Origin: a virus
Virus record (IMG/VR): IMGVR_UViG_3300005530_000039
Span: 1 to 45,552 of that record
Length of the DNA: 45,552 nt
Direction: 5' to 3' (one strand)
Part shown: positions 4,506 to 23,323 of the stretch, in pieces
Position numbering within the stretch: the stretch's first letter is position 1
How the letters are laid out: every line of letters starts with the position of its first letter
Made by a program: the position numbers and the translations under genes
Notes under the pieces: generated by a model
Told to the model about the DNA's origin: nothing
Database searches by the model: none
Seen by the model: the letters and a program-made list of their open reading frames with translations, nothing else

Positions 4506-4801
4506 AAACAGTATTTATAGTTAATCATTCTGGTCAGCATTCATACGAAGCTGCCAAAGAAAAGGGTGAATTGGTGTATCTAACTCGTGGGTTCATTGAC
4601 ATTGCAAATGATTTGAAATCTATCGTTCATTCCATAGAATCACTAATTGCAACGTCAGAGCCAGAGGATTACTTACTGTTATCCGGGAACGGTTTACTCT
4701 GTGTTATGGCATTTGATCTATGGAAAAGAAAGCATGGCAAGGTGACCGTGCTACATACGATCAATTCCGGGCGGAGCTATACCGAACATGAGTTCAACTA
4801 G
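4502..4801 (+). CDS. conserved phage protein, alpha/beta (99 aa)
   Basis: Alpha/beta protein opening with a beta strand and turn (KTVFIVNHSGQ) followed by LVYLTRG, SEPEDYLLLSGNG and HGKVTVLHT. This arrangement matches a small uncharacterised protein seen in many tailed phages, recognised from memory and not by search. The function is unknown in that group. It overlaps the previous stop (AAAATGA) and runs 14 nt into the next gene. Confidence 0.6.
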   Translation: MKTVFIVNHSGQHSYEAAKEKGELVYLTRGFIDIANDLKSIVHSIESLIATSEPEDYLLLSGNGLLCVMAFDLWKRKHGKVTVLHTINSGRSYTEHEFN

Positions 4802-5063
4802 AAGTGAAAGTAAAATACGGAAACATGTAGAGTTCTCAAAAGATGATTATGAGTGGTTTATAGCTACACATCATGTTGGTGATGATACATTGCGTACAGG
4901 ATTCTCTGCTGTTATAGCAATGTTATTACATAACTATAGAACTGTCTGCGAGAATCCAGCAGACTTTCCACTAACAGGAGTAGCATTAATTGATACAACA
5001 AAAGAAGCAGCAAAGGAGACGAAAAAAGAACTTGATAGCGTTAGAGATTTGGACAATAGCTAA
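4788..5063 (+). CDS. hypothetical protein, possible small DNA-binding fold (91 aa)
   Basis: Starts inside the previous gene (CATGAGTTC). The N-terminus is basic (SSTRSESKIRKHVEFSKDDYEWF), then come a predicted helix pair and a charged, lysine/glutamate-rich tail. The layout loosely recalls ribbon-helix-helix regulators (one strand, then two helices), but no diagnostic motif is seen. Treat the DNA-binding idea as inference. Confidence 0.5.
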   Translation: MSSTRSESKIRKHVEFSKDDYEWFIATHHVGDDTLRTGFSAVIAMLLHNYRTVCENPADFPLTGVALIDTTKEAAKETKKELDSVRDLDNS

Positions 5064-8174: not shown

Positions 8175-8642
8175 ATGCCAAAGTTTGATTTCAATCCAGC
8201 CGATGCAGTTTCTGGTATTCCTGTATACCCGAAGGATTCATATGAAGTTGAATTGGGTGAGCCAGTTTCTTTCTATCGTGCAGGTAAAGATGGAAAGGCA
8301 GATAATTATGGTGTGATGTTCAAGTCCAAGATTCGTGATGGTAAGTTTGCTGGCAAGCCGACGATTATTAATTGTTACATGCACAATGAAGATTCACTCG
8401 GATTTACGAAGTCAGTTCAGATGGCTGCACTTGGATATACTCCTCGTAAGTCTGGTGAGGATGAAAGATTTAATGCAGATCATGGTACAGATGGTTGGGG
8501 AATTAATACTGACGATCGTACTTGTGATCAAGGTTGGCATAATATGAAGGGTCAGACATTAGTTTGGGATGCTGATACTAAGATTGATAAGAATGGTGAG
8601 CAGCAACAAGTTACTCTTGGTTATCGCCCTTTAGGTTCATAA
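8175..8642 (+). CDS. putative ssDNA-binding protein of the recombination module
   Basis: A 155-residue beta-rich protein. It opens with FDFNPADA and VYPKDSYEVELGEPVSF, then FKSKIRDGKFAGKPTIINCYM, a pattern like the DUF669-type phage ssDNA-binding proteins that accompany Sak4 ATPases. It ends in a strand pair (QVTLGYRPLGS) instead of the usual acidic tail of SSBs. Assignment rests on the pattern and on position behind nuclease and Sak4-like genes. If correct, it coats ssDNA for the annealing ATPase. Confidence 0.5.
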   Translation: MPKFDFNPADAVSGIPVYPKDSYEVELGEPVSFYRAGKDGKADNYGVMFKSKIRDGKFAGKPTIINCYMHNEDSLGFTKSVQMAALGYTPRKSGEDERFNADHGTDGWGINTDDRTCDQGWHNMKGQTLVWDADTKIDKNGEQQQVTLGYRPLGS

Positions 8643-8726
8643 TAGAACGAGATTTAGATAGAGCATTCTTTGAGTATCGTGAATATAGATTAAGATATTT
8701 AAAGAATGATATGAAGATAGAATAAA

Positions 8727-8882
8727 ATCATCTTAGGTAGTGTAGCCTCGCTCAAGATTAGTGAAGCTTACCAGCTAGAAATGAAAAAGTATCCCTATAT
8801 AAATCAGTATGGTCGCATGGGATGACCCATCTAGTATAGCAATGTGCTAATTGAGAGATAAAAAGCAGCTACCTAAGATGAT
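8727..8882 (+). ncRNA. candidate rod-like structured RNA closed by a 14-bp stem
   Basis: ATCATCTTAGGTAG (8727-8740) pairs perfectly with CTACCTAAGATGAT (8869-8882). Inside, CTCAA plus TTAG (8751-8761) pairs with CTAA plus TTGAG (8847-8855), continuing the helix after a bubble. Near the tip, GGTC and GACC can pair around 8812-8826. The result is a long hairpin with internal loops, broadly the outline of 6S-type RNAs. There is no convincing gene in 8643-8885, and a tRNA fragment starts 4 nt after the stem. It is probably processed from the same transcript. No known RNA family is claimed. Confidence 0.5.
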
Positions 8883-8885
8883 CTC

Positions 8886-8915
8886 GGACCCTTAGCTCAG
8901 TTGGTTAGAGCAGAA
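8886..8915 (+). pseudogene. 5' half of an interrupted tRNA gene
   Basis: GGACCCT (acceptor), TA, a D-arm GCTC-AGTTGGTTA-GAGC and then AGA match a tRNA exactly up to the start of the anticodon stem, where an HNH endonuclease gene begins. The matching acceptor strand AGGGTCC lies 477 nt away at 9392-9398. The anticodon arm is missing, so the amino acid identity is unknown and the gene is probably non-functional. Confidence 0.7.
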
Positions 8916-8916
8916 T

Positions 8917-9312
8917 ATGTTAGATAATCTTCTCTCCCTGTATCCTAATTATACAACTTGGTATGGTCCTACTTTTCATAAAAGTGAAGGTAGATATTAT
9001 ATCTATTTGTATAATAAGGATACAAAGAAGAGAACAACTATAGCTTACGCTAAAGCTATAATCCAATGTAAGCTTAATAGACTATTAAATAAGAATGAAG
9101 AAGTAGATCATATAGATAATAATAAAGTAAATGATACAGTAGAAAATCTACAAATTATAACTAAGTTAAATAATACAAGAAAAACAAGTTTAGACAAATA
9201 CGTAGAAGTTACATGTATGTATTGCAGTAGAAATTTTAATAAATTAAAAAGTAGAGTTAGTAATAAAGTATATTGCAGTAACTCTTGTAGATTTGCTGCT
9301 AAGCGCGTGTAA
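8917..9312 (+). CDS. HNH homing endonuclease inserted in a tRNA gene
   Basis: HNH nuclease of 131 residues. The core is EEVDHIDNNKVNDTVENLQ (about 61-79) with the catalytic DH pair at 64-65 and Asn at 68 and 78. A C-terminal zinc-finger-like module has C100, C103, C120 and C124. It starts 2 nt after the 5' half of a broken tRNA, and its stop lies inside the tRNA-Ile gene (9303-9375). Free-standing phage HNH genes often spread by homing. Here the insertion appears to have removed the anticodon arm of the host tRNA gene. Very AT-rich codon use agrees with recent acquisition or drift. Confidence 0.85.
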   Translation: MLDNLLSLYPNYTTWYGPTFHKSEGRYYIYLYNKDTKKRTTIAYAKAIIQCKLNRLLNKNEEVDHIDNNKVNDTVENLQIITKLNNTRKTSLDKYVEVTCMYCSRNFNKLKSRVSNKVYCSNSCRFAAKRV

Positions 9313-9375
9313 CTCAGCGGTTAGAGTATTCGCCTTATAAGCGAAGAGTCGAAGGTTCAACTCCTTCCACGCGCA
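9303..9375 (+). tRNA. tRNA-Ile (anticodon UAU)
   Basis: Complete cloverleaf. The acceptor pairs GCGCGTG with CACGCGC, the D-arm is ACTC/GAGT, the anticodon stem TTCGC/GCGAA holds loop CTTATAA (anticodon TAT), and the T-arm is GAAGG-TTCAACT-CCTTC, with discriminator A. It reads AUA, a codon frequent in this phage. The HNH stop codon lies in its acceptor stem, so the two genes share 10 nt. CCA is not encoded. Confidence 0.9.
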
Positions 9376-9399
9376 TAGGTTCAATTCCTTCAGGGTCCA
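9376..9399 (+). pseudogene. 3' half of the interrupted tRNA gene
   Basis: AGG-TTCAATT-CCTTC forms most of a T-arm, followed by the acceptor strand AGGGTCC and discriminator A. That strand pairs with GGACCCT of the fragment at 8886. Two bases of the T-stem have been replaced at the junction with the tRNA-Ile 3' end. No anticodon arm lies between the halves apart from that of tRNA-Ile. Confidence 0.65.
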
Positions 9400-9427
9400 C
9401 TTGTAGTACAACATTCATGGAGAATTT

Positions 9428-9703
9428 ATGGCAAAAGAAAATCTAATCGAGCTTGGCGATCTAGTAAAAGATAAGATAACTGGATTTGAGGGAGTAGTAA
9501 CTGGATATACTAAGTGGTTAACTGGTTGTGATAGAGTAGTTGTGCAACCTAGACAATTAGGCGATAGTGGTCATCTAAGAATGACAGAATCATTTGATAT
9601 ATCTCAGATAGATGTGATTGAGAAAAATGTTATCAAATTGAACCAAAGAACAAAAGAAGAAAAGAAATCGGGTGGTCCAATGCCAACACCAAAACCTTGG
9701 TAA
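9428..9703 (+). CDS. conserved small phage protein (91 aa)
   Basis: [35 protein letters not shown] matches, from memory, a widespread phage protein with an SH3-like small beta-barrel look. The function is unknown. The C-terminus is a proline/lysine tail (PMPTPKPW). A GGAG ribosome-binding site sits 8 nt before the start. It is the first gene after the tRNA cluster. Confidence 0.65.
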
Positions 9704-9847: not shown

Positions 9848-9883
9848 TTCATCCTATATATAATGTACTATATATAGGATGAA
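9848..9883 (+). terminator. perfect 15-bp inverted repeat; possible terminator or processing hairpin
   Basis: TTCATCCTATATATA (9848-9862) pairs perfectly with TATATATAGGATGAA (9869-9883) around a 6-nt loop. No T-run follows, so classical intrinsic termination is doubtful. An RNase III-type processing site or RNA stabiliser before tRNA-Leu is equally likely. Confidence 0.45.
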
Positions 9884-9901: not shown

Positions 9902-9939
9902 AAGGTTTCTTATTCTCCCCAGTATAAAATAACGAAACC
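9902..9939 (+). promoter_or_regulatory. second inverted repeat before tRNA-Leu
   Basis: AAGGTTTC (9902-9909) and GAAACCTT (about 9933-9940) form an 8-bp stem around a 23-nt loop that contains TATAAA. It sits a few bases before the tRNA-Leu 5' end. It may be a leader or processing structure, or an operator around a weak -10. Confidence 0.35.
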
Positions 9940-9943
9940 TTAC

Positions 9944-10025
9944 GCCGCCTTGGCGAAATTGGTAGACGCGAGGGACTTAAAATCCCTTTCTTAACAGAGT
10001 ATCGGTTCGAGTCCGATAGGTGGCA
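9944..10025 (+). tRNA. tRNA-Leu (anticodon UAA)
   Basis: Acceptor GCCGCCT pairs with AGGTGGC (one G-U), discriminator A. The anticodon stem AGGGA/TCCCT holds loop CTTAAAA (anticodon TAA). A long variable arm and the T-arm (TCGG-TTCGAGT-CCGA core) are typical of leucine tRNAs. It reads UUA/UUG, heavily used here. The next gene starts one base after its end, and CCA is not encoded. Confidence 0.92.
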
Positions 10026-11481: not shown

Positions 11482-11696
11482 TGACACAGTTCGTTGAGAT
11501 TCTACTTATAAATGGCAGAAAGATTGGAGTAAATATAGATAATATTTTAGAGTTTGCTCCACATCCACAAGAAATTGGAGTATGTAATATTATAGTTAAA
11601 GTACCATCAGGTGGTGTATATCCAGTCAAGATGCCATATAGTGATTTGAGAAAGTTATTTATTCCTCCTGGAAGTGATTTAAAGTTGATTAATTAA
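11481..11696 (+). CDS. hypothetical protein (71 aa)
   Basis: Small beta-rich protein (QFVEILLINGRKIGVNIDNIL, then GVCNIIVKVPSGGVYPVKM) with glycines at turns. Overlaps the GroES-like stop (TAATG) and is itself overlapped by the polymerase gene start (TAATGA). No family recognised. Confidence 0.55.
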   Translation: MTQFVEILLINGRKIGVNIDNILEFAPHPQEIGVCNIIVKVPSGGVYPVKMPYSDLRKLFIPPGSDLKLIN

Positions 11697-13384
11697 TGAC
11701 AGCATTAATATCTAATAGAAAGGTCCCGCCATCGGGACCAGAAGATGCTGAAATCCTAATAATAGGTGAAGCACCTGGATATGAAGAAGACAAAGAGCTT
11801 ATTCCATTTATTGGTGATGCTGGAAAGGAGCTTAATAGGGGATTGGCGGTTGCTGGATTTGACAGGAATAACATTCGTGTTACTAATGTGTGTAACTACC
11901 GTCCTAATAACAATAAGTTTGAGTTATTAGAGGATACTTGGCAACTTCAAGAAGGAATAAACGATGTCAAAGAATTCATCGAAACGCATAAATCTACACT
12001 TAAATTTGTCGTACTCTGCGGAGGGAAACCGCTCGAATACATCGGAAGAAAACACGGAATCGACAAGTGGCGATCTTCGGTCATCGAAGAATCTGGAGTT
12101 AAGTTCTTTTGTTCATATCATCCTTCCGCAATCATTCGAGATAGATCTTTATACAGTACGTTTACATTCGATTTTCGAAAACTTTACAGGTACGTTAAAG
12201 AGGGTTATAGAAAGCCCGAATATAGATTTAACATTAACCCAACTGGAACAGATCGTGAAGAAGCTCTCAGAGAGCTAGAAAGCCATGGACGATTATATAT
12301 TGACATTGAGAGTGTTAAAGGAACTACTCATATATTGTGTTGTGGCTTTGCTAGTTCTCCTACCGAAGCAACCGTATTTAGTAATAGTAATTTTGGTTTT
12401 CTCGATTTTGAATTCCACTCTAGCTTATCTAGAATTCTTGAGAATCCTAAAATTGAGAAGTTTTATCATAACGGATTTGGTTACGATATCGAAGTATTAA
12501 GATTGAATGGTATAAATGTACAGAATTATGTATATGATACAATGATTGGTGCTCATGTACTAGAACCTGAATTACCTTATAGTCTAGCTTATCTTACAAC
12601 TTTATACACAGATCAAGCTTATTATAAGGATAAAGGTAAGTCAGCAATTCCAGATGATGAAGAAAAAGGATGGAGTGAGAAAGTAGATAGACAAACATTG
12701 TACGAATATAATGCAACTGACTGTGTAGTCACAGCTAAGGTTGCTATTGAACAAATAAAAGAAATAAATGAGCGTAAACTCTGGAGAACATATAATTATA
12801 AAGCTTCTCTTATTCCCCTCGGACAAGAATTAAGTCGAAATGGATTAGAAGTATTTCAGGAACAAAGAGAGTTATTAAGAGAAGCAGTTAAACTAAAATG
12901 GAAATATTATCAGGAGATTCTTAATGGCATAGCAGGATTTAAAGTCAATGCCAAATCTCCAAAACATATGACTAAGTTACTCCTAGAGCAATTTGGTTTA
13001 CCTGAAAGACGAAATAGGAACGCTGGCATAACCTTCGATGAAGATGCTATCGTATCCTATTTTTCTTTTATACAGGCTAAGATAGATGAATCTAAAAGGG
13101 AAGCAACGATTGAACAATGGACATTGAGATTAGCTGCCTGTAAGTGTATTTTATTAATTAGGGGATTTAGACAGCTAATTTCTAACTATGTCAAAGTTAA
13201 GATATCATCTGATAATCGACTTAGATCTGTTTATAATTTATCGGCTGCAACTGAAACAGGTAGAGGATCTTCGCATAAATGGGTTGATGGAACTGGTCTT
13301 AATGCGCAGACATTTCCAAGAGAAAGACTTGAACTAGATGACTTTGAGGTTGAACTCTTAAAGAAAAAAGGATTTTTGTTATGA
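11696..13384 (+). CDS. uracil-DNA glycosylase / 3'-5' exonuclease / N-terminal part of DNA polymerase A
   Basis: First half of a split family A polymerase. Residues 1-170 are a UDG-superfamily domain: GEAPG (24-28), PFIGDAG (37-43), VTNVCNYRP (62-70) and YHPSA (141-145), the SPO1-polymerase type arrangement. Residues about 195-350 are a DnaQ-like exonuclease: Exo I D203/E205 in YIDIE, Exo II N259 and D264, and Exo III Y338 to D342. The rest is thumb/palm up to LSAATETGRGSSHKW and LNAQTFPRE, the family A segment just before motif A, plus an unrelated 19-residue tail. The remaining palm and fingers are encoded separately at 14647. The halves probably assemble as one enzyme. Confidence 0.88.
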   Translation: MTALISNRKVPPSGPEDAEILIIGEAPGYEEDKELIPFIGDAGKELNRGLAVAGFDRNNIRVTNVCNYRPNNNKFELLEDTWQLQEGINDVKEFIETHKSTLKFVVLCGGKPLEYIGRKHGIDKWRSSVIEESGVKFFCSYHPSAIIRDRSLYSTFTFDFRKLYRYVKEGYRKPEYRFNINPTGTDREEALRELESHGRLYIDIESVKGTTHILCCGFASSPTEATVFSNSNFGFLDFEFHSSLSRILENPKIEKFYHNGFGYDIEVLRLNGINVQNYVYDTMIGAHVLEPELPYSLAYLTTLYTDQAYYKDKGKSAIPDDEEKGWSEKVDRQTLYEYNATDCVVTAKVAIEQIKEINERKLWRTYNYKASLIPLGQELSRNGLEVFQEQRELLREAVKLKWKYYQEILNGIAGFKVNAKSPKHMTKLLLEQFGLPERRNRNAGITFDEDAIVSYFSFIQAKIDESKREATIEQWTLRLAACKCILLIRGFRQLISNYVKVKISSDNRLRSVYNLSAATETGRGSSHKWVDGTGLNAQTFPRERLELDDFEVELLKKKGFLL

Positions 13385-13698
13385 ATCGGGAAGTAATAGC
13401 AGTTGATTTCGATGGAACTATCTTTAATAGAGAAACTGGAGTATTATTTGTTGGTGCAGTGGAATTTCTTAGAACATTAAATACCCAGTATGATTTAGTA
13501 ATTTTCTCTGCAAGATGTTCTCAACTTAGTGGTAGATCTTTTATAATGGATGTACTAAGAAAGCATCAGTTAGTAGGTATTATCACAGAGGTTACAGATA
13601 GAAAGAAATTTGATTTCAAGTTAATAATAGATGATCGAGCTAGGTATTGTAATGGTAATCAACACTATGGCGAGATATTGGATAGTTTAAGACTATGA
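13381..13698 (+). CDS. HAD-family phosphatase/hydrolase
   Basis: Haloacid-dehalogenase hydrolase of 105 residues. Motif I is VDFDGT (nucleophile D9, general acid D11), motif II is the Ser in VIFSAR, and motif IV is IIDDRA (about 84-89). The small size, lacking a big cap, fits phage nucleotidase or nucleic-acid phosphatase types. It starts by ATGA overlap with the first polymerase half, as the first of five genes inserted between the halves. Confidence 0.8.
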   Translation: MNREVIAVDFDGTIFNRETGVLFVGAVEFLRTLNTQYDLVIFSARCSQLSGRSFIMDVLRKHQLVGIITEVTDRKKFDFKLIIDDRARYCNGNQHYGEILDSLRL

Positions 13699-13889
13699 TA
13701 GAAGAATATGTGAAGGAACTAGTAGAGAATACACCAGAGAAAGAGAATATAATGGTTACTATCTCTGTGACTAGACCTCTATTAGCTAGGATTAATAAGT
13801 TAAGAATACAACGTAAGATGAACAGAGAACCACAGTTTAAGTGTTTAGAAAGAATAGTCAAGTTCTATGAGGAGAATCATGGAACATGA
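13695..13889 (+). CDS. hypothetical protein, possible ribbon-helix-helix (64 aa)
   Basis: A strand-like ENIMVTISVT followed by RPLLARINKLRIQRKM and a last helix (ECLERIVKFYEEN-like) has the shape of a ribbon-helix-helix regulator. No diagnostic match is certain. Overlaps both neighbours by a few bases, inside the insertion between polymerase halves. Confidence 0.45.
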   Translation: MIEEYVKELVENTPEKENIMVTISVTRPLLARINKLRIQRKMNREPQFKCLERIVKFYEENHGT

Positions 13890-14046
13890 AATAACGTGGG
13901 AAGCAGTAAGCCCTAAAAAGATAATGGTTACTTGTAGTTGTGGTGAGAAATGGTCACATCCAATTGATGTAACATTCGATAAGATGAATGATATATTTAA
14001 GGCTCACGTTAAATATTATACACGAGTTAAACAAGAGACTTTATGA
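13879..14046 (+). CDS. small protein with CSCG motif (55 aa)
   Basis: Starts behind GGAG (AGGAGAATCATG) and encodes 55 residues with a CSCG knuckle (19-22) preceded by strand IMVTCS and followed by EKWSHPIDVTF. A partial zinc-ribbon look, but only one cysteine pair. Ends in ATGA overlap with the next gene. Confidence 0.55.
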   Translation: MEHEITWEAVSPKKIMVTCSCGEKWSHPIDVTFDKMNDIFKAHVKYYTRVKQETL

Positions 14047-14429
14047 AAACTAAGGATCAAGTCCAAGAAATATTTGGACAAATTTGGCAAGAAATAAATA
14101 AGCTAAGGGAAGCAGGTCAAAAGGAATATGCAGGTGGAGAAAATGCATTCGGTAATTTCGAGCGATTAGCAACAGAGCTAAATCTAACCCGTGAAAAGGT
14201 TCTTTGGGTATATTTTACTAAGCATTTAGATGGCATTAGAGCTTATCTAAATGGGCATGTATCTCAGAGGGAATCAATAGAAGGTAGAATTAATGATGCT
14301 ATTGTTTATCTTATGTTATTGAGATGTATGGTTCAGGATAGTAAAGAATCTTTATTATCTCCATCTCTATTACAAAATGATAATAGTTGGATAAATCGAA
14401 CTGGGAAGCTGAAGAATAAACTAAAATGA
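14043..14429 (+). CDS. MazG/Nmad1-like phage protein (128 aa)
   Basis: Helical protein with EYAGGENAFGNFERLATELNL, WVYFTKHLDGIRAYL and GRINDAIVYLMLLR. This arrangement (K-x-x-x-Y-x-x-G-x-x-N-A-x-x-N-F, then K-H, then D-x-x-x-Y-L) is typical of the DUF1599/nucleotide-modification-associated, MazG-like phage proteins. MazG relatives hydrolyse NTPs, but whether this one is catalytic cannot be told. Inserted between the polymerase halves, it is at least in nucleotide/replication context. Confidence 0.6.
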   Translation: MKTKDQVQEIFGQIWQEINKLREAGQKEYAGGENAFGNFERLATELNLTREKVLWVYFTKHLDGIRAYLNGHVSQRESIEGRINDAIVYLMLLRCMVQDSKESLLSPSLLQNDNSWINRTGKLKNKLK

Positions 14430-14650
14430 TCAAATCACTCCTTGAATCATATAGCTATACTCCATTCGAAATTAAAGATAAGATTAACGAGATTATTAAT
14501 ATAGTTAATCAGTTAGATAGTCAGAGTCCTGCCAAAAGAGTAATTGAATATGTTGTATTGATAGATTTACTCGGTGGTGCAGATAATATAAATAGAGCAT
14601 TACTAGCTAACTTACACATGAATAGTTATTTGGCTCGCGAAATAAAGTGA
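14426..14650 (+). CDS. helical hypothetical protein (74 aa)
   Basis: Alpha-helical protein (FEIKDKINEIINIVNQL; AKRVIEYVVLIDLLGG). No family recognised. Its stop overlaps the GTG start of the second polymerase half (GTGA), so translation of that half probably depends on it. Confidence 0.5.
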   Translation: MIKSLLESYSYTPFEIKDKINEIINIVNQLDSQSPAKRVIEYVVLIDLLGGADNINRALLANLHMNSYLAREIK

Positions 14651-15441
14651 AAATCCCAATCCGTTCAATGATCCACGCACCAAAGGATCATCTTCTATTA
14701 TCTTGTGATTTATCTCAAGCAGAAGCTTGGGTAGTAGCATATGCAGCTGATGAACCTAGAATGAAAGCTGCATTAAAGACAGGTAAGATTCACGAGACAA
14801 CAGCACAATTCTGTTTAGAATTACCTTCAATGGTAATGTCAGAGGAACAGAGATACGTCGGGAAGAAATGTAATCATGCCTTTAATTATAGAATGGGGCC
14901 TGAGCGATGCTGTGAGATCATCAATAAAGAAGGACTCATTACAGTCTCAAATAAACAAACAAAGAAGTTCCATAGTAAATACCTCGAACTATATCGTATC
15001 CAAGACTGGTGGAGAGAAATCGAAGAGAAGCTCAAATATGAGCGATCACTTCAAAACTATTATGGATTCAGAAGAAATTTCCATCAGGCGATTTCTCCTG
15101 AATTATTTAAAGAGGGGACCGCATTCATACCACAATCTACGATTGCAGACCACATGTATGGTAATATTCAACCTAACTTTCCAAGAAGTGGAGGACTACT
15201 TGAAGTCCATAAGCAAATCACTGGCCCTAGCAAGGGCGAATTCAAATTAGTTCATTCAGCACATGATAGCTGTATCATAGAATTTCCGAAGAGACACGAT
15301 GTTAAAGAATTATATTGTCGAGTTAAGAATCTTTTGGAAAGACCTATGATGATTAATGGAGAAGAATTCACAGTTCCTATGGATGGTAAGTATGGAGAGG
15401 TTTGGGAGGATGGAATGGAGAAAATAAAGAATGCTGCTTAA
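14647..15441 (+). CDS. C-terminal half of split DNA polymerase A (palm/fingers)
   Basis: Carries the catalytic core of a family A polymerase. Motif A is SCDLSQAE (D21, steric-gate-position E26). The O-helix (motif B) is RYVGKKCNHAFNY, with R69, K73 and Y81 aligning to Pol I R754, K758 and Y766. Motif C is SAHDSC (H206, D207). Two departures are visible by alignment with Pol I: the F762 position is His77, and the residue after the motif C Asp is Ser, not Glu. The gene begins with GTG, overlapping the previous stop. The first half of the enzyme ends at 13384, so the gap holds five unrelated genes. Neither half could polymerise alone. Confidence 0.88.
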   Translation: MKIPIRSMIHAPKDHLLLSCDLSQAEAWVVAYAADEPRMKAALKTGKIHETTAQFCLELPSMVMSEEQRYVGKKCNHAFNYRMGPERCCEIINKEGLITVSNKQTKKFHSKYLELYRIQDWWREIEEKLKYERSLQNYYGFRRNFHQAISPELFKEGTAFIPQSTIADHMYGNIQPNFPRSGGLLEVHKQITGPSKGEFKLVHSAHDSCIIEFPKRHDVKELYCRVKNLLERPMMINGEEFTVPMDGKYGEVWEDGMEKIKNAA

Positions 15442-20200: not shown

Positions 20201-21779
20201 GATTCTCTAATTCATCTATTCCTCTAACAATATGTGGAGCACCATTTAAGCTAACAACCTCATTAGGCATATAACCAGTCTTCTCAAAGAATTCTTGAGT
20301 AGGCTGATTAAGCTTCCAAGGTGTCATCATAGTAGTACCACCATCTGACCTATATACATTATAGGCATATGGAGTTCTACCCATTTGACCATCAAAGTTC
20401 TGCTTAGGTATATCTAAAGTTCCAACGTTAGCGGGTACATTAGGAGCATTATTCTTAATAAACTCCTTAATATTAGCTCTATGCGATAATATTTCAGGTT
20501 CAGTTAATCCTGTAGAATTAACCAAATCTTCCATAATAATTGGAGCAGATTTACCATTTCCACCAGCTAAATAGACAGCCTTATCGAAAGGATCAGCAAA
20601 GTTAGGTACAAGAATACCACGAACACCACCAAGATTCGGTCTAGACATATTAAGAATACGCTGGACTTTATCGGATGGCTTATATGCTCCTTCTGACATT
20701 CTGGTGGAAGGAGATAATTCATCTCGTAACTGATTGGTTCGTTCCTCAGATAAGTCTTCAATAATAGCTGCCTGCCCAACATTAAGCTTAGATTTAACAA
20801 ACGCAGTTGCAAGATTATCAGATGATGCCAGAGCATCAACATTAGATATAACATCCTCTACTGAGGAATTATTAGTAGTTTGTAATGCTTTAGTCTGAGC
20901 TAATTCTTGAGCATTCTCAACTGATTTATTTAATATAGTTGCCCTTTCTGTTCCAACTTCCTTTAATTGTGTCTTAGCTCTTAACGTACCAAATAATACA
21001 CCCAATGGAGCAAAACTAACTAAATCTCCGAGAGACTTAGCTATTTGATCATCTTGTCCCATTCCACTAACCATACCTTGTGCAAATCCACCAGCAGCAT
21101 TAGCAGCTGTACTAGCTCCAATATTTTTAGCTAATATACCAATCTTAGATGGAGTTAATGCAGCTTCTCCTTTTAATGCTGGTGCCATCATATCTGTAAT
21201 CTTGCCTACAGTATATGCTTGAGCAGCCATTCCAGCTAACTTCTGAATATTTTCAGCTTGCTGTTGAGGAGTAGATGGAACTGCTACACCATTCTCATCA
21301 TGAGTTTGTGTTAATACTCCAATAGGAACAGTAAGGAAGCTAGTTAATCCTTTTACTGCCCCGCCAACAGTTTCAGCTATTGTACCACCAATACCCTTAT
21401 TCTGTAAATTAGATTGAAATGTATTAGCTGCTTGATCTACTTGAGCAGTTATATCAGATATTTGCTGTCTAGGATTTGAGAAATCTAGACCACTCTTAAA
21501 GAACTTACCAATGTTCTTAGCTAGTATATTTCCAGTTTCTCTACTATAATCTAACTGCTGTTGAGTATAATTATGATATGGATCTAGGGTCTGGGCTATT
21601 GCTGATAAAGCTTTAGGTGTAGCATTACGTAAATAGGAAAACATATTCCCGATACCAAACATATCATCGTTAGTATCGGGAGGTATATTTTCTAGCTGAG
21701 GGGCTATAGAGCCCCAATCTATTCCAGTTCCTTTTGGTTTAGACTGGGGCTTTACAGCATTCCAATCAATACCTGTCAT
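17250..21779 (-). CDS. very large virion/ejection protein (1509 aa)
   Basis: The longest gene. It lies at the end of the leftward block, where podovirus internal ejection proteins sit (compare T7 gp16, 1318 residues). The N-terminus repeats a short motif: TGIDWNAVKPQ then TGIDWGSIAPQ. Residues about 130-270 are alanine/glycine-rich with hydrophobic helices (VGGAVKGLTSFLTVPIGVL; ANAAGGFAQGMVSG), fitting membrane insertion or channel formation. No lysozyme or transglycosylase motif was identified. Family homology cannot be named, so the role is inferred from size and position. Confidence 0.7.
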   Translation of the reverse strand: MTGIDWNAVKPQSKPKGTGIDWGSIAPQLENIPPDTNDDMFGIGNMFSYLRNATPKALSAIAQTLDPYHNYTQQQLDYSRETGNILAKNIGKFFKSGLDFSNPRQQISDITAQVDQAANTFQSNLQNKGIGGTIAETVGGAVKGLTSFLTVPIGVLTQTHDENGVAVPSTPQQQAENIQKLAGMAAQAYTVGKITDMMAPALKGEAALTPSKIGILAKNIGASTAANAAGGFAQGMVSGMGQDDQIAKSLGDLVSFAPLGVLFGTLRAKTQLKEVGTERATILNKSVENAQELAQTKALQTTNNSSVEDVISNVDALASSDNLATAFVKSKLNVGQAAIIEDLSEERTNQLRDELSPSTRMSEGAYKPSDKVQRILNMSRPNLGGVRGILVPNFADPFDKAVYLAGGNGKSAPIIMEDLVNSTGLTEPEILSHRANIKEFIKNNAPNVPANVGTLDIPKQNFDGQMGRTPYAYNVYRSDGGTTMMTPWKLNQPTQEFFEKTGYMPNEVVSLNGAPHIVRGIDELENLTTREKVKASLDNVTRDNTNINSEMYKDQSGNQIGRAGVLNRDNYFSNMYDAFKQKFILDEVPNDSYANEIIKFAKSFGISNKGDIEGIQKGFYSKIQEEVQNGMPENEAITNVKSQLEKWSETFRKETGTKLSQALQGNGMYIVSRGGGRYDIRDISSQTTLQNVGSAEEAYKFVTKSGLTNGLDLDGGDTNGTPTAPASLGSLADPYSYQTNKWAKRFDIWNTGGLSKYLVGVGKQLASIDATTGTDFTTHVNAMQRVKGIMKYLGGTKYKGLESDYNDIQDLAKGLPEDRLHLITDNLETKSPKEILNTFLDRKMNGFEAFKAGELSKLDVDNVVDFMHQVTSNIDGDIGGNEFLGKMNEVASKVDASGNLVYDPKEVQAADELFKMTQFSDKANPLAIVRLAQALKFPDQALTRADHAARYDLTANEIKIVNRLDRLFEKTKEVTGLNPQDAIDIHLNNAKIADALGMDVYDNKDFQSQFAKQSYDLNGSLIRNPLLLARNFLYSATRTEPIAPLVDVYPNLYGRNIDPTQKVSFNEVVKNAEKYNANLLKDGKADPAHAATFAEHVADIKGIPDLSEQLGTAAQKALSDMLGKTLSKSPQGIRAINLLANVSYLGGRLALPLRDITNGMQNIYNTYGAKFAARVLGNSISADYANALYAAGDIPSQSGLELLNPGETIHNGVDRLAKAADFGQRMNGARLAHQQLSVGIYKATMEQVADLSGDMLKNEISKADAYKELKIGQIDPTNAKLFDDYITAGNTIGAAKLLAKYRVKSAVNIFGNNNSPLAWSSSWGRLAGTFMSWGTNQIQTLVDGTLRGSRGDRLAYGLRWGASNAAILGAGYAAGVNLNRWMISPFDLVGNSPILGAYDATRQTLTDLTNPNVASRQKAQQALYDFVPHNDKTIAHMWIPYSQMMQGIVDSYNQANQNYGPVAGMTALGFKAIDTRSPLQKNAGYTPYKIDRNRNRTYLKNKDETSFEK

Positions 21780-23323
21780 TTCTTAGTTCCCTTTTTAGCT
21801 CTGTAAGCAGCTACAATAGCATCAAGTATTTCAGGTGGAGCATTATTCTTCTTACCTTCAGCTATTATCTGCTCTTCAGTTGCACCACTCTTAATTGCTG
21901 CATCAGCCATTGCTTGAATCTTAGGATCAATAGCTTCTTTCTTTTGTTCAGTTCCTGCTAATGGTATACCAGTTGCTGTAGATACATCACTAGCTATATC
22001 AGGATCTCCAGCTACTCTTAATTGAGTATGTTTCTCTGGACCAACAAGTCCACCAGTTAATGAATGTACTATATCTTTATTAGGAGTAGCATTAACAGAG
22101 AATACTGGAGCTGGAACATAATTACCTTTATAGGCAGTTGCAGCTTCCATATTTAAGAAATTTAAATCTCCCTGCGATATATCTTCTCCATTACCTGCTC
22201 TCTTTAATATATCATTTACGCCAGGTGATTTAGCAAATGCAGAGAATGCGCTAGCTTTATTCTGTTTAGCATTCCCAGCACCGATAGCTTTAAATGTATC
22301 TCTTATATATTGTGTCTTAGGATCTGTAGAATCTAATATAGCTCTTGGGTCATCAATCATTTGGCTGATATCATCCATACCTAATGGCATACCAACCTTA
22401 GCAGACATCTCATATATATGACTAGCTAATGCTTGATTTCTAGCATCTATTTGAGCCTGCTTATTAGCTGCATTTAGATCCTTAGCTCGCTGATCTCCTA
22501 ATTGCTGGAAATGAGCTTGCATATCTCTTTCATATATCTCCTTATATGCAGGATCATCTGATGCAACTAAATGTTCAACTGGAGATATTTTACCTGCCGT
22601 TTTAGCTTCAAATAAGTTAGTACCTTTAGGTAAACGCTTCATTATATTTGCTGCAGCTGCTGAACTAGCTTTAGCTTGCTCTGCATCAGCATTTAGTTTA
22701 TTAGTTCTAGCTTCTTCTTCTGCTGATTGAGCTAATTGCTGCTTAGTAGAAGCTTCAGTAGCTGCAACTAAAGCTTTACCATGTGCTCTTTGCTCATCAG
22801 TTTGAATACCACCTTGAGTCATTAATTCCCGATAACGCTGATAATCATCAGGAGTTATTCCTGGACCTTTAACTACTGAAATATCTTCTATTCCTTGTTC
22901 AGCATCACCAGGATTATTAGGTGCAGGTAATACTTGTCCACCTTCACCTGTTCTTTCAAATCTATCAAATGCATCTCCAGCAGATATTATTCTACCTCTA
23001 CCTTTCTCTATAGCTAAATCATTCTGTGCCTTAGCTTGAGCAGCTAAATATTTAGGATCAGTAATTGGTTGAGAAAGTAATGCAGATAATTCATCATAAT
23101 TACTCTTACCGAATAATGGCTTTCTGCCTAATATAGCTGATGGATTTTGACCATATTGTTCTTGATACTGAGGTAGAGCTTGAGGATTAGCTTGAAGATA
23201 GGCTAGTAATTTAGCTCGCTCTTGGGCTTTAGGATCACGTAAAGCATTTAAGCCTTCGAGTAATCCTGCGGCTCCACTTAATGTTCCACCTAATCCTGGT
23301 CCAGGTTGATATGGTCCTGTCAT
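21776..23323 (-). CDS. probable internal virion protein (515 aa)
   Basis: Helical, Ala/Gln-rich protein with a long coiled-coil-like middle (about 170-300; QLAQSAEEEARTNKLNADA). The glycine/proline-rich beginning (TGPYQPGPGLGGTLSGAAG) is typical of internal virion proteins that pass through the portal. Overlaps the 1509-residue gene by ATGA. With its two flanking genes it makes a likely three-protein ejection set. No homologue named. Confidence 0.6.
   Translation of the reverse strand: MTGPYQPGPGLGGTLSGAAGLLEGLNALRDPKAQERAKLLAYLQANPQALPQYQEQYGQNPSAILGRKPLFGKSNYDELSALLSQPITDPKYLAAQAKAQNDLAIEKGRGRIISAGDAFDRFERTGEGGQVLPAPNNPGDAEQGIEDISVVKGPGITPDDYQRYRELMTQGGIQTDEQRAHGKALVAATEASTKQQLAQSAEEEARTNKLNADAEQAKASSAAAANIMKRLPKGTNLFEAKTAGKISPVEHLVASDDPAYKEIYERDMQAHFQQLGDQRAKDLNAANKQAQIDARNQALASHIYEMSAKVGMPLGMDDISQMIDDPRAILDSTDPKTQYIRDTFKAIGAGNAKQNKASAFSAFAKSPGVNDILKRAGNGEDISQGDLNFLNMEAATAYKGNYVPAPVFSVNATPNKDIVHSLTGGLVGPEKHTQLRVAGDPDIASDVSTATGIPLAGTEQKKEAIDPKIQAMADAAIKSGATEEQIIAEGKKNNAPPEILDAIVAAYRAKKGTKK

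What the first reader, a model, noticed from the sequence alone, without database searches (positions are those of the whole stretch)
8727..8882. Candidate novel structured RNA upstream of the tRNA cluster
A perfect 14-bp closing stem (ATCATCTTAGGTAG with CTACCTAAGATGAT) encloses about 130 nt that can fold further by CTCAA/TTGAG, TTAG/CTAA and GGTC/GACC pairings into a bulged rod. The region has no convincing gene, lies on the early transcript and ends 4 nt before a tRNA fragment, so RNase processing could release it. The outline is similar to 6S-like RNAs that bind RNA polymerase, an attractive function for a phage, but no family match is claimed.
Basis: partly seen in the sequence, partly recalled or inferred. 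Interest (0 to 1): 0.7.

Follow-up and report, generated by a model that had tools for sequence, protein, structure and literature searches.

The report
Stem-capped RNA beside phage tRNA genes
A phage carries, just in front of a (now broken) tRNA gene, a stretch whose RNA ends zip together into a 14-pair stem, and its distant relatives carry quite different sequences with the same kind of stem in the same place, so the stem itself appears to be selected, probably to release and protect a small RNA; nothing links it to RNA-polymerase-binding 6S RNA.

Summary
The 14-bp perfect stem (8727-8740 / 8869-8882) is real. Stems this long arose in 4 of 60 shuffled windows. The enclosed 128 nt folds no better than shuffled sequence, so the "bulged rod" is not supported. 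Rfam has no match, 6S included, and no sequence homologue was found in IMG/VR or INPHARED. The stem is nevertheless not isolated. About 15 related phages share the gene order Sak4-like ATPase, SSB-position gene, tRNA/small-ORF slot, GroES-like gene, DNA polymerase. In that slot, perfect stems of 12 bp or more number 10 in 6.3 kb of non-coding DNA, against 0 in 8.7 kb of other non-coding DNA and 3 in 167 kb of coding DNA. The stems have unrelated sequences but often end 2-6 nt before a tRNA (stems of 9 bp or more: 8 of 17 tRNAs, 12 of 510 random positions). Some stand head to tail with 0-7 nt spacers. I read it as a stem-capped non-coding RNA unit of a phage tRNA array, organised like T4 species 1 and 2 RNAs: RNase P cuts beside it and the stem protects the ends (inferred). 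Its downstream tRNA has been broken by an HNH gene plus tRNA-Ile. Action in trans is unknown; expression is untested.

The parts
8175..8642 (+). 155-aa gene in the SSB position downstream of the Sak4-like ATPase; anchor of the conserved slot
   Evidence: ORF; no Pfam/PHROG hit; relatives by tblastn in syntenic loci. 'SSB' is inferred from position only.
8664..8708 (+). small imperfect hairpin between the SSB-position gene and the element (15-nt arms, 87% complementary)
   Evidence: inverted repeat I6; part of the -65.7 kcal/mol, z -6.0 fold of 8643-8886
8727..8740 (+). 5' arm of the 14-bp closing stem
8741..8868 (+). enclosed 128 nt; no ORF, folding no better than shuffles
8869..8882 (+). 3' arm of the 14-bp closing stem
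8883..8885 (+). 3-nt spacer (CTC) between stem and tRNA acceptor
   Evidence: sequence; relatives have 2-6 nt
8886..8914 (+). 5' half of a broken tRNA gene (acceptor GGACCCT, D-arm)
   Evidence: sequence; pairs with AGGGTCC 9392-9398; not called by ARAGORN or Rfam
8917..9312 (+). HNH endonuclease ORF inserted in the tRNA
   Evidence: PHROG 14913 E 7.5e-28; HNH_3 E 1.3e-4, below Pfam's cut-off
9303..9375 (+). intact tRNA-Ile (anticodon tat) next to the HNH ORF
9376..9399 (+). 3' remnant of the broken tRNA (partial T-arm, acceptor AGGGTCC, A)
   Evidence: sequence; direct repeat D5 of the T-arm region
9848..9883 (+). 15-bp perfect hairpin; the only one of 10 bp or more with a loop of 3-14 nt in the window
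9902..9941 (+). hairpin AAGGTTTC/GAAACCTT ending 2 nt before tRNA-Leu
9944..10025 (+). tRNA-Leu (taa)

Best explanation
8727-8882 is a stem-capped non-coding RNA unit in the tRNA array of a podovirus-like phage. Shown: a perfect 14-bp stem; its place between the SSB-position gene and a tRNA; and that relatives keep long perfect stems of unrelated sequence in the same slot, often 2-6 nt from a tRNA and sometimes packed head to tail, so base pairing and position rather than sequence are kept. Inferred: the unit is co-transcribed with its neighbours. RNase P (or the tRNA-maturation enzymes) cut at the tRNA 5' end, leaving the stem with a 3' tail of about 3 nt, too short for RNase R to engage well. 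The stem thereby defines and protects the ends of a roughly 160-nt RNA, and probably the 3' end of the upstream mRNA too. Further inferred, and weakest: the fast-changing, loosely folded interior acts in trans on quickly changing targets (host or defence RNAs or proteins) rather than through a conserved fold. In this genome the tRNA next to it has since been broken by an HNH gene plus tRNA-Ile, so the cut may now be impaired.
For: Stem real and unlikely by chance. Slot enrichment for stems of 12 bp or more: 10 in 6.3 kb non-coding slot DNA, 0 in 8.7 kb other non-coding, 3 in 167 kb coding (an earlier count gives 9 in slots against 3 elsewhere). Examples: L205 15 bp, L211 12 and 13 bp, L213 12, L215 12, L216 17 and 12, contig of L124 (L304, reverse strand) 13. 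tRNA 5' ends preceded within 1-8 nt by a stem of 9 bp or more: 8 of 17 in the clade, 12 of 510 random positions, p 2e-8; 3 of 42 tRNAs in other phage loci. Units packed with small spacers: L216 4546-4673 / 4677-4783 / tRNA 4786; L211 2067-2146 / 2154-2354 / tRNA 2359; L205 4750-4830 / 4833-4932. The sense strand has the lower shuffle z in 9 of 12 gap regions. T4 rnaC and rnaD are spaced 6 nt from each other and 1 nt from tRNA-Arg. RNase R needs about 7 nt of 3' overhang (PMC12320835).
Against: The interior has no excess folding and no detectable conservation, so 'RNA gene' rests on the stem and the packing. Five relatives (L206, L207, L209, L210, L214) have essentially no gap there. Expression and ends are untested. 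The slot was recognised after seeing several examples, although its borders are set by genes. No alignable homologues, hence no classical covariation. The neighbouring tRNA is broken in this genome. No antisense target beyond chance in the phage itself.
Confidence: 0.47

Rival explanations
1. Punctuation only: the stem is a processing and stability signal at the mRNA/tRNA border (RNase III substrate and/or exonuclease block) that separates the SSB-position mRNA from the tRNA; the enclosed 128 nt is passive spacer and no RNA acts in trans.
For: Interior folding at chance level in the window and in several relatives (L205a, L211a, L213c2, L304-reverse inner z between -0.3 and +0.4). Interiors unrelated. 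Simple short hairpins do the same job at other borders, e.g. window 9902-9941 and L208 4422-4468.
Against: Tandem units with 0-7 nt spacers (L216, L211, L215, L205) are not needed for punctuation. Some interiors are folded better than chance (L211b z -3.0, L204 -2.1, L216b -2.0), and L205b/L212b is a conserved tRNA-like RNA (alignment z 13.9).
Confidence: 0.27
2. A trans-acting structured RNA of the 6S type that binds host RNA polymerase.
For: Size (156 nt), closed ends and a rod-like minimum-energy fold.
Against: No match to any Rfam family up to E 10 other than the tRNA and sub-threshold chance hits. The interior does not fold better than shuffles and the minimum-energy structure is 1% of the ensemble.
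Confidence: 0.02
3. DNA-level feature: an inverted repeat used as a cruciform, protein site or relic of a mobile element, not an RNA.
For: Perfect Watson-Crick arms do not discriminate between RNA and DNA; an HNH insertion lies next door.
Against: Position relative to tRNA 5' ends, packing as units, and lower z on the sense strand in 9 of 12 gap regions point to RNA. Arms are unrelated between phages, unlike transposon ends.
Confidence: 0.1
4. Chance inverted repeat in AT-rich DNA.
For: Shuffled windows give a stem of this length 4 times in 60.
Against: It lies in the one slot where relatives carry independent long stems, 3 nt from a tRNA.
Confidence: 0.07

Closest known systems
Phage T4 small stable RNAs, species 1 (rnaC, 139 nt) and species 2 (rnaD, 119 nt)
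   Same: Non-coding units of similar size inside a phage tRNA array, packed 1-6 nt from neighbours, with a homing endonuclease gene (segB) in the same array.
   Different: No 12-17 bp closing stem is evident in either fold of T4 (rnaD z -0.9). rnaC ends in a tRNA T-arm (CCGGGTTCGAATCCCGG), which the window RNA lacks; L205b, L212b and L215a in relatives do carry T-arm-like ends. No sequence match found.
GOLLD and ROOL ornate RNAs
   Same: Phage or prophage non-coding RNAs of unknown function often near tRNA islands (PMC12286853).
   Different: GOLLD is much larger (many over 800 nt), and both have elaborate conserved structures; no Rfam hit in the window or in 11 relatives' loci.
Theta (HDV-like) ribozymes of gut phages
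   Same: RNA elements next to phage tRNAs proposed to act in tRNA maturation (PMC10879173).
   Different: They are associated downstream of tRNAs and are proposed to cut 3' trailers; the window element lies upstream and has no Rfam ribozyme match.
6S RNA
   Same: Overall size and closed rod in the minimum-energy drawing.
   Different: No family match and no significant interior fold.

Membership tests
6S RNA (RF00013) | covariance-model match | tested here: not met
   not reported at E up to 10 for 8650-9450
6S RNA (RF00013) | conserved rod with central bubble, folding beyond chance | tested here: not met
   interior z -0.44
6S RNA (RF00013) | binding to RNA polymerase holoenzyme | not testable with these tools
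   needs biochemistry
T4 species 1/2-type tRNA-array RNAs | non-coding unit packed within a few nt of tRNA genes | tested here: met
   3 nt from tRNA acceptor at 8886; T4 spacing 1-6 nt
T4 species 1/2-type tRNA-array RNAs | sequence or structural similarity to rnaC/rnaD | tested here: not met
   no meaningful BLAST hit in the phage records; no T-arm in the window RNA; folds differ
T4 species 1/2-type tRNA-array RNAs | stable processed RNA in infected cells | not testable with these tools
   no transcript data
Stem-capped RNAs of the SSB-to-GroES slot (set described here) | perfect closing stem of 12 bp or more in the syntenic slot | tested here: met
   14 bp
Stem-capped RNAs of the SSB-to-GroES slot (set described here) | common descent with relatives' elements | tested here: inconclusive
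   best pair L216 4677-4783, z 3.2, 4th of 325 pairs; a motif drawn from both finds only L216 and one unrelated coding site in IMG/VR
GOLLD / ROOL | covariance-model match | tested here: not met
Theta/HDV-like or other Rfam self-cleaving ribozyme | covariance-model match | tested here: not met
   no separate theta-specific model was tried

The most novel reading that the evidence does not exclude
The slot encodes arrays of a previously undescribed, very fast-evolving class of stem-capped phage RNAs, released by tRNA-type processing, that act as decoys or antisense RNAs against host or defence targets; only the capping stem, not the sequence, is kept under selection.
Probability: 0.2. Interest if true: 0.75.

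Novelty: new variant of a known kind. Interest (0 to 1): 0.48.

Why it matters
Two small stable RNAs are annotated in the T4 tRNA cluster without an assigned function in that record (to my knowledge still unexplained). A clade of phages in which similar units recur with different sequences but the same end-capping stem would give a handle on what is selected in such RNAs (ends and processing, or the interior) and a simple test: swap interiors or stems. It also shows how a search by sequence or covariance can miss a non-coding RNA locus that synteny plus stem statistics reveals.

Tried and rejected
6S or any Rfam family: none. Sequence homologues of the element: none by megablast or blastn in INPHARED beyond chance. 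Homology to L216 4677-4783: suggestive by eye (AAAAGTAT..CTATA..AGTATAG), shuffle p about 0.003, but other unrelated pairs reach similar z, and a pattern scan found no third member; left open. RNAalifold on that pair: no useful consensus. Terminator: no T-run after the stem on the + strand and no terminator-like call there. Antisense pairing to the phage's own genes: longest complement 10-11 nt, as in shuffles. Split or intron-containing tRNA: the two halves lack an anticodon arm, so a broken gene is likelier (reading).

Full report
What is there. ATCATCTTAGGTAG (8727-8740) pairs perfectly with CTACCTAAGATGAT (8869-8882). The 171-nt region folds at -46.7 kcal/mol, z -3.9, and the stem pairs have probability 0.83 to 1.0. 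Over the whole window a perfect stem of 14 bp or more with a loop of 15-250 nt occurs once; 4 of 60 shuffled windows have one. The feature is therefore the stem, not a rod. No ORF of 25 aa or more lies in 8643-8916.

Surroundings. Upstream is a 155-aa gene in the position where an SSB would follow a Sak4-like ATPase (SSB is inferred by position). Downstream, after CTC, begins GGACCCTTAGCTCAGTTGGTTAGAGCAGA, a tRNA 5' half. An HNH endonuclease ORF (8917-9312) and an intact tRNA-Ile (9303-9375) are inserted, and the 3' remnant TAGGTTCAATTCCTTCAGGGTCCA ends at 9399. The anticodon arm is missing, so that tRNA is broken. Two further hairpins lie nearby: 9848-9883 (15 bp, the only perfect hairpin of 10 bp or more with a loop of 3-14 nt in the window) and 9902-9941, which ends 2 nt before tRNA-Leu 9944.

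Finding relatives. The element itself has no detectable homologue. The polymerase, aligned with remote phage homologues, led to L124-L128 at 36-40% identity, and the GroES-like gene (named from its sequence and my own knowledge of the family) to L204-L219. The order Sak4-like ATPase, SSB-position gene, slot, GroES-like gene, polymerase is kept. In most of them the slot begins with non-coding DNA that folds well: L204 253 nt, L205 190, L211 365, L212 203, L215 282, L217 192, and also L216, 531 nt between two tRNAs, and the contig of L124 (L304, reverse strand). L206, L207, L209, L210 and L214 have an ORF there instead.

The shared trait. The relatives' elements do not resemble each other in sequence, except L205b/L212b, a 100-nt RNA with a tRNA-like acceptor and T-arm (z 13.9). 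They share long perfect closing stems. Stems of 12 bp or more: 10 in 6.3 kb of non-coding slot DNA, 0 in 8.7 kb of other non-coding DNA, 3 in 167 kb of coding DNA. Stems of 9 bp or more end 1-8 nt before 8 of 17 tRNAs of the clade, against 12 of 510 random positions (p 2e-8) and 3 of 42 tRNAs in other phage loci; two of those three, L262 and L267, are also polymerase relatives with hairpin arrays before tRNA-Leu. The window's own case is not among the 17, because ARAGORN does not call the broken tRNA. Two of the eight (window tRNA-Ile 9303 and L219 tRNA-Leu) have stems inside an upstream ORF and may be chance. In a wider census of 126 polymerase loci the enrichment upstream of the polymerase is only about twofold, so the trait is strongest in the close clade.

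Caveats on these statistics. The slot was noticed in a few genomes before it was counted, but its borders are gene borders and most loci were fetched by a protein query. Stems within one array are not independent. One-genome peculiarities (for example GC-rich repeats in L217) may contribute.

How it most likely works. Packing at 0-7 nt (L216, L211, L215, L205, L267) is how tRNA genes and the stable RNAs of T4 are packed (rnaC/rnaD 6 nt, rnaD/tRNA-Arg 1 nt). RNase P cleavage at a tRNA 5' end would leave each stem with a 2-6 nt tail. RNase R needs about 7 nt (PMC12320835), so such ends should be long-lived. This makes the stem a cap that turns tRNA-type cleavage into a stable 3' end, for a small RNA and perhaps for the upstream mRNA. 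This step is inferred. Whether the interior does anything is open: its lack of excess folding and conservation fits either spacer or a rapidly changing antisense/decoy RNA.

Known kinds. Closest in organisation are T4 species 1 and 2 RNAs; GOLLD and ROOL are other tRNA-island RNAs of phages (PMC12286853) but do not match. Theta ribozymes are associated with the downstream side of tRNAs (PMC10879173). 6S is not supported. I therefore call it a new variant of a known kind, with moderate confidence.

Noticed in passing
8886-9399: A tRNA gene is split by an HNH endonuclease ORF plus a complete tRNA-Ile(tat); the halves lack an anticodon arm, and the T-arm region is duplicated (15 nt, 93%). It looks like an endonuclease/tRNA cassette that destroyed the resident tRNA.
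   Followed up: partly
8627-8725: Perfect -1 slippery heptamer C CCT TTA at the end of the SSB-position gene, followed by an open -1 frame that stops 1 nt before the hairpin. May be coincidence.
   Followed up: no
11696-15441: Family A DNA polymerase encoded in two pieces, an N-terminal piece with UDG and exonuclease domains (11696-13384) and a C-terminal piece (14647-15441), separated by about 1.3 kb of small ORFs; Microcystis phage Mel-JY34 and two other phages have one gene.
   Followed up: no
L205:4833-4934 and L212:4475-4577: Conserved 100-nt tRNA-like RNA (GGCGCAA...TTGCGCC, T-arm with TTCGATT loop, compensatory changes in stems, possible TCCC/GGG pseudoknot, CGGCC loop) not called by ARAGORN or Rfam.
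   Followed up: partly
L258:6480-6530 and L262:6480-6530: Conserved element ACCGTGTGG(T/C)CCCGAGCGGTGGAGATTCGGG(A/G)CA upstream of tRNA-Leu with a T-A to C-G compensatory change; a possible separate small RNA motif.
   Followed up: no
L127:5676-6350: About 670 nt of non-coding, strongly folded sequence between tRNA-Lys and tRNA-Gln with several cloverleaf-like units.
   Followed up: partly
8901-9080 and 21601-21780: The strongest composition-corrected folding signals of the window: an imperfect long hairpin inside the start of the HNH ORF, and one near 21.6-21.8 kb.
   Followed up: no
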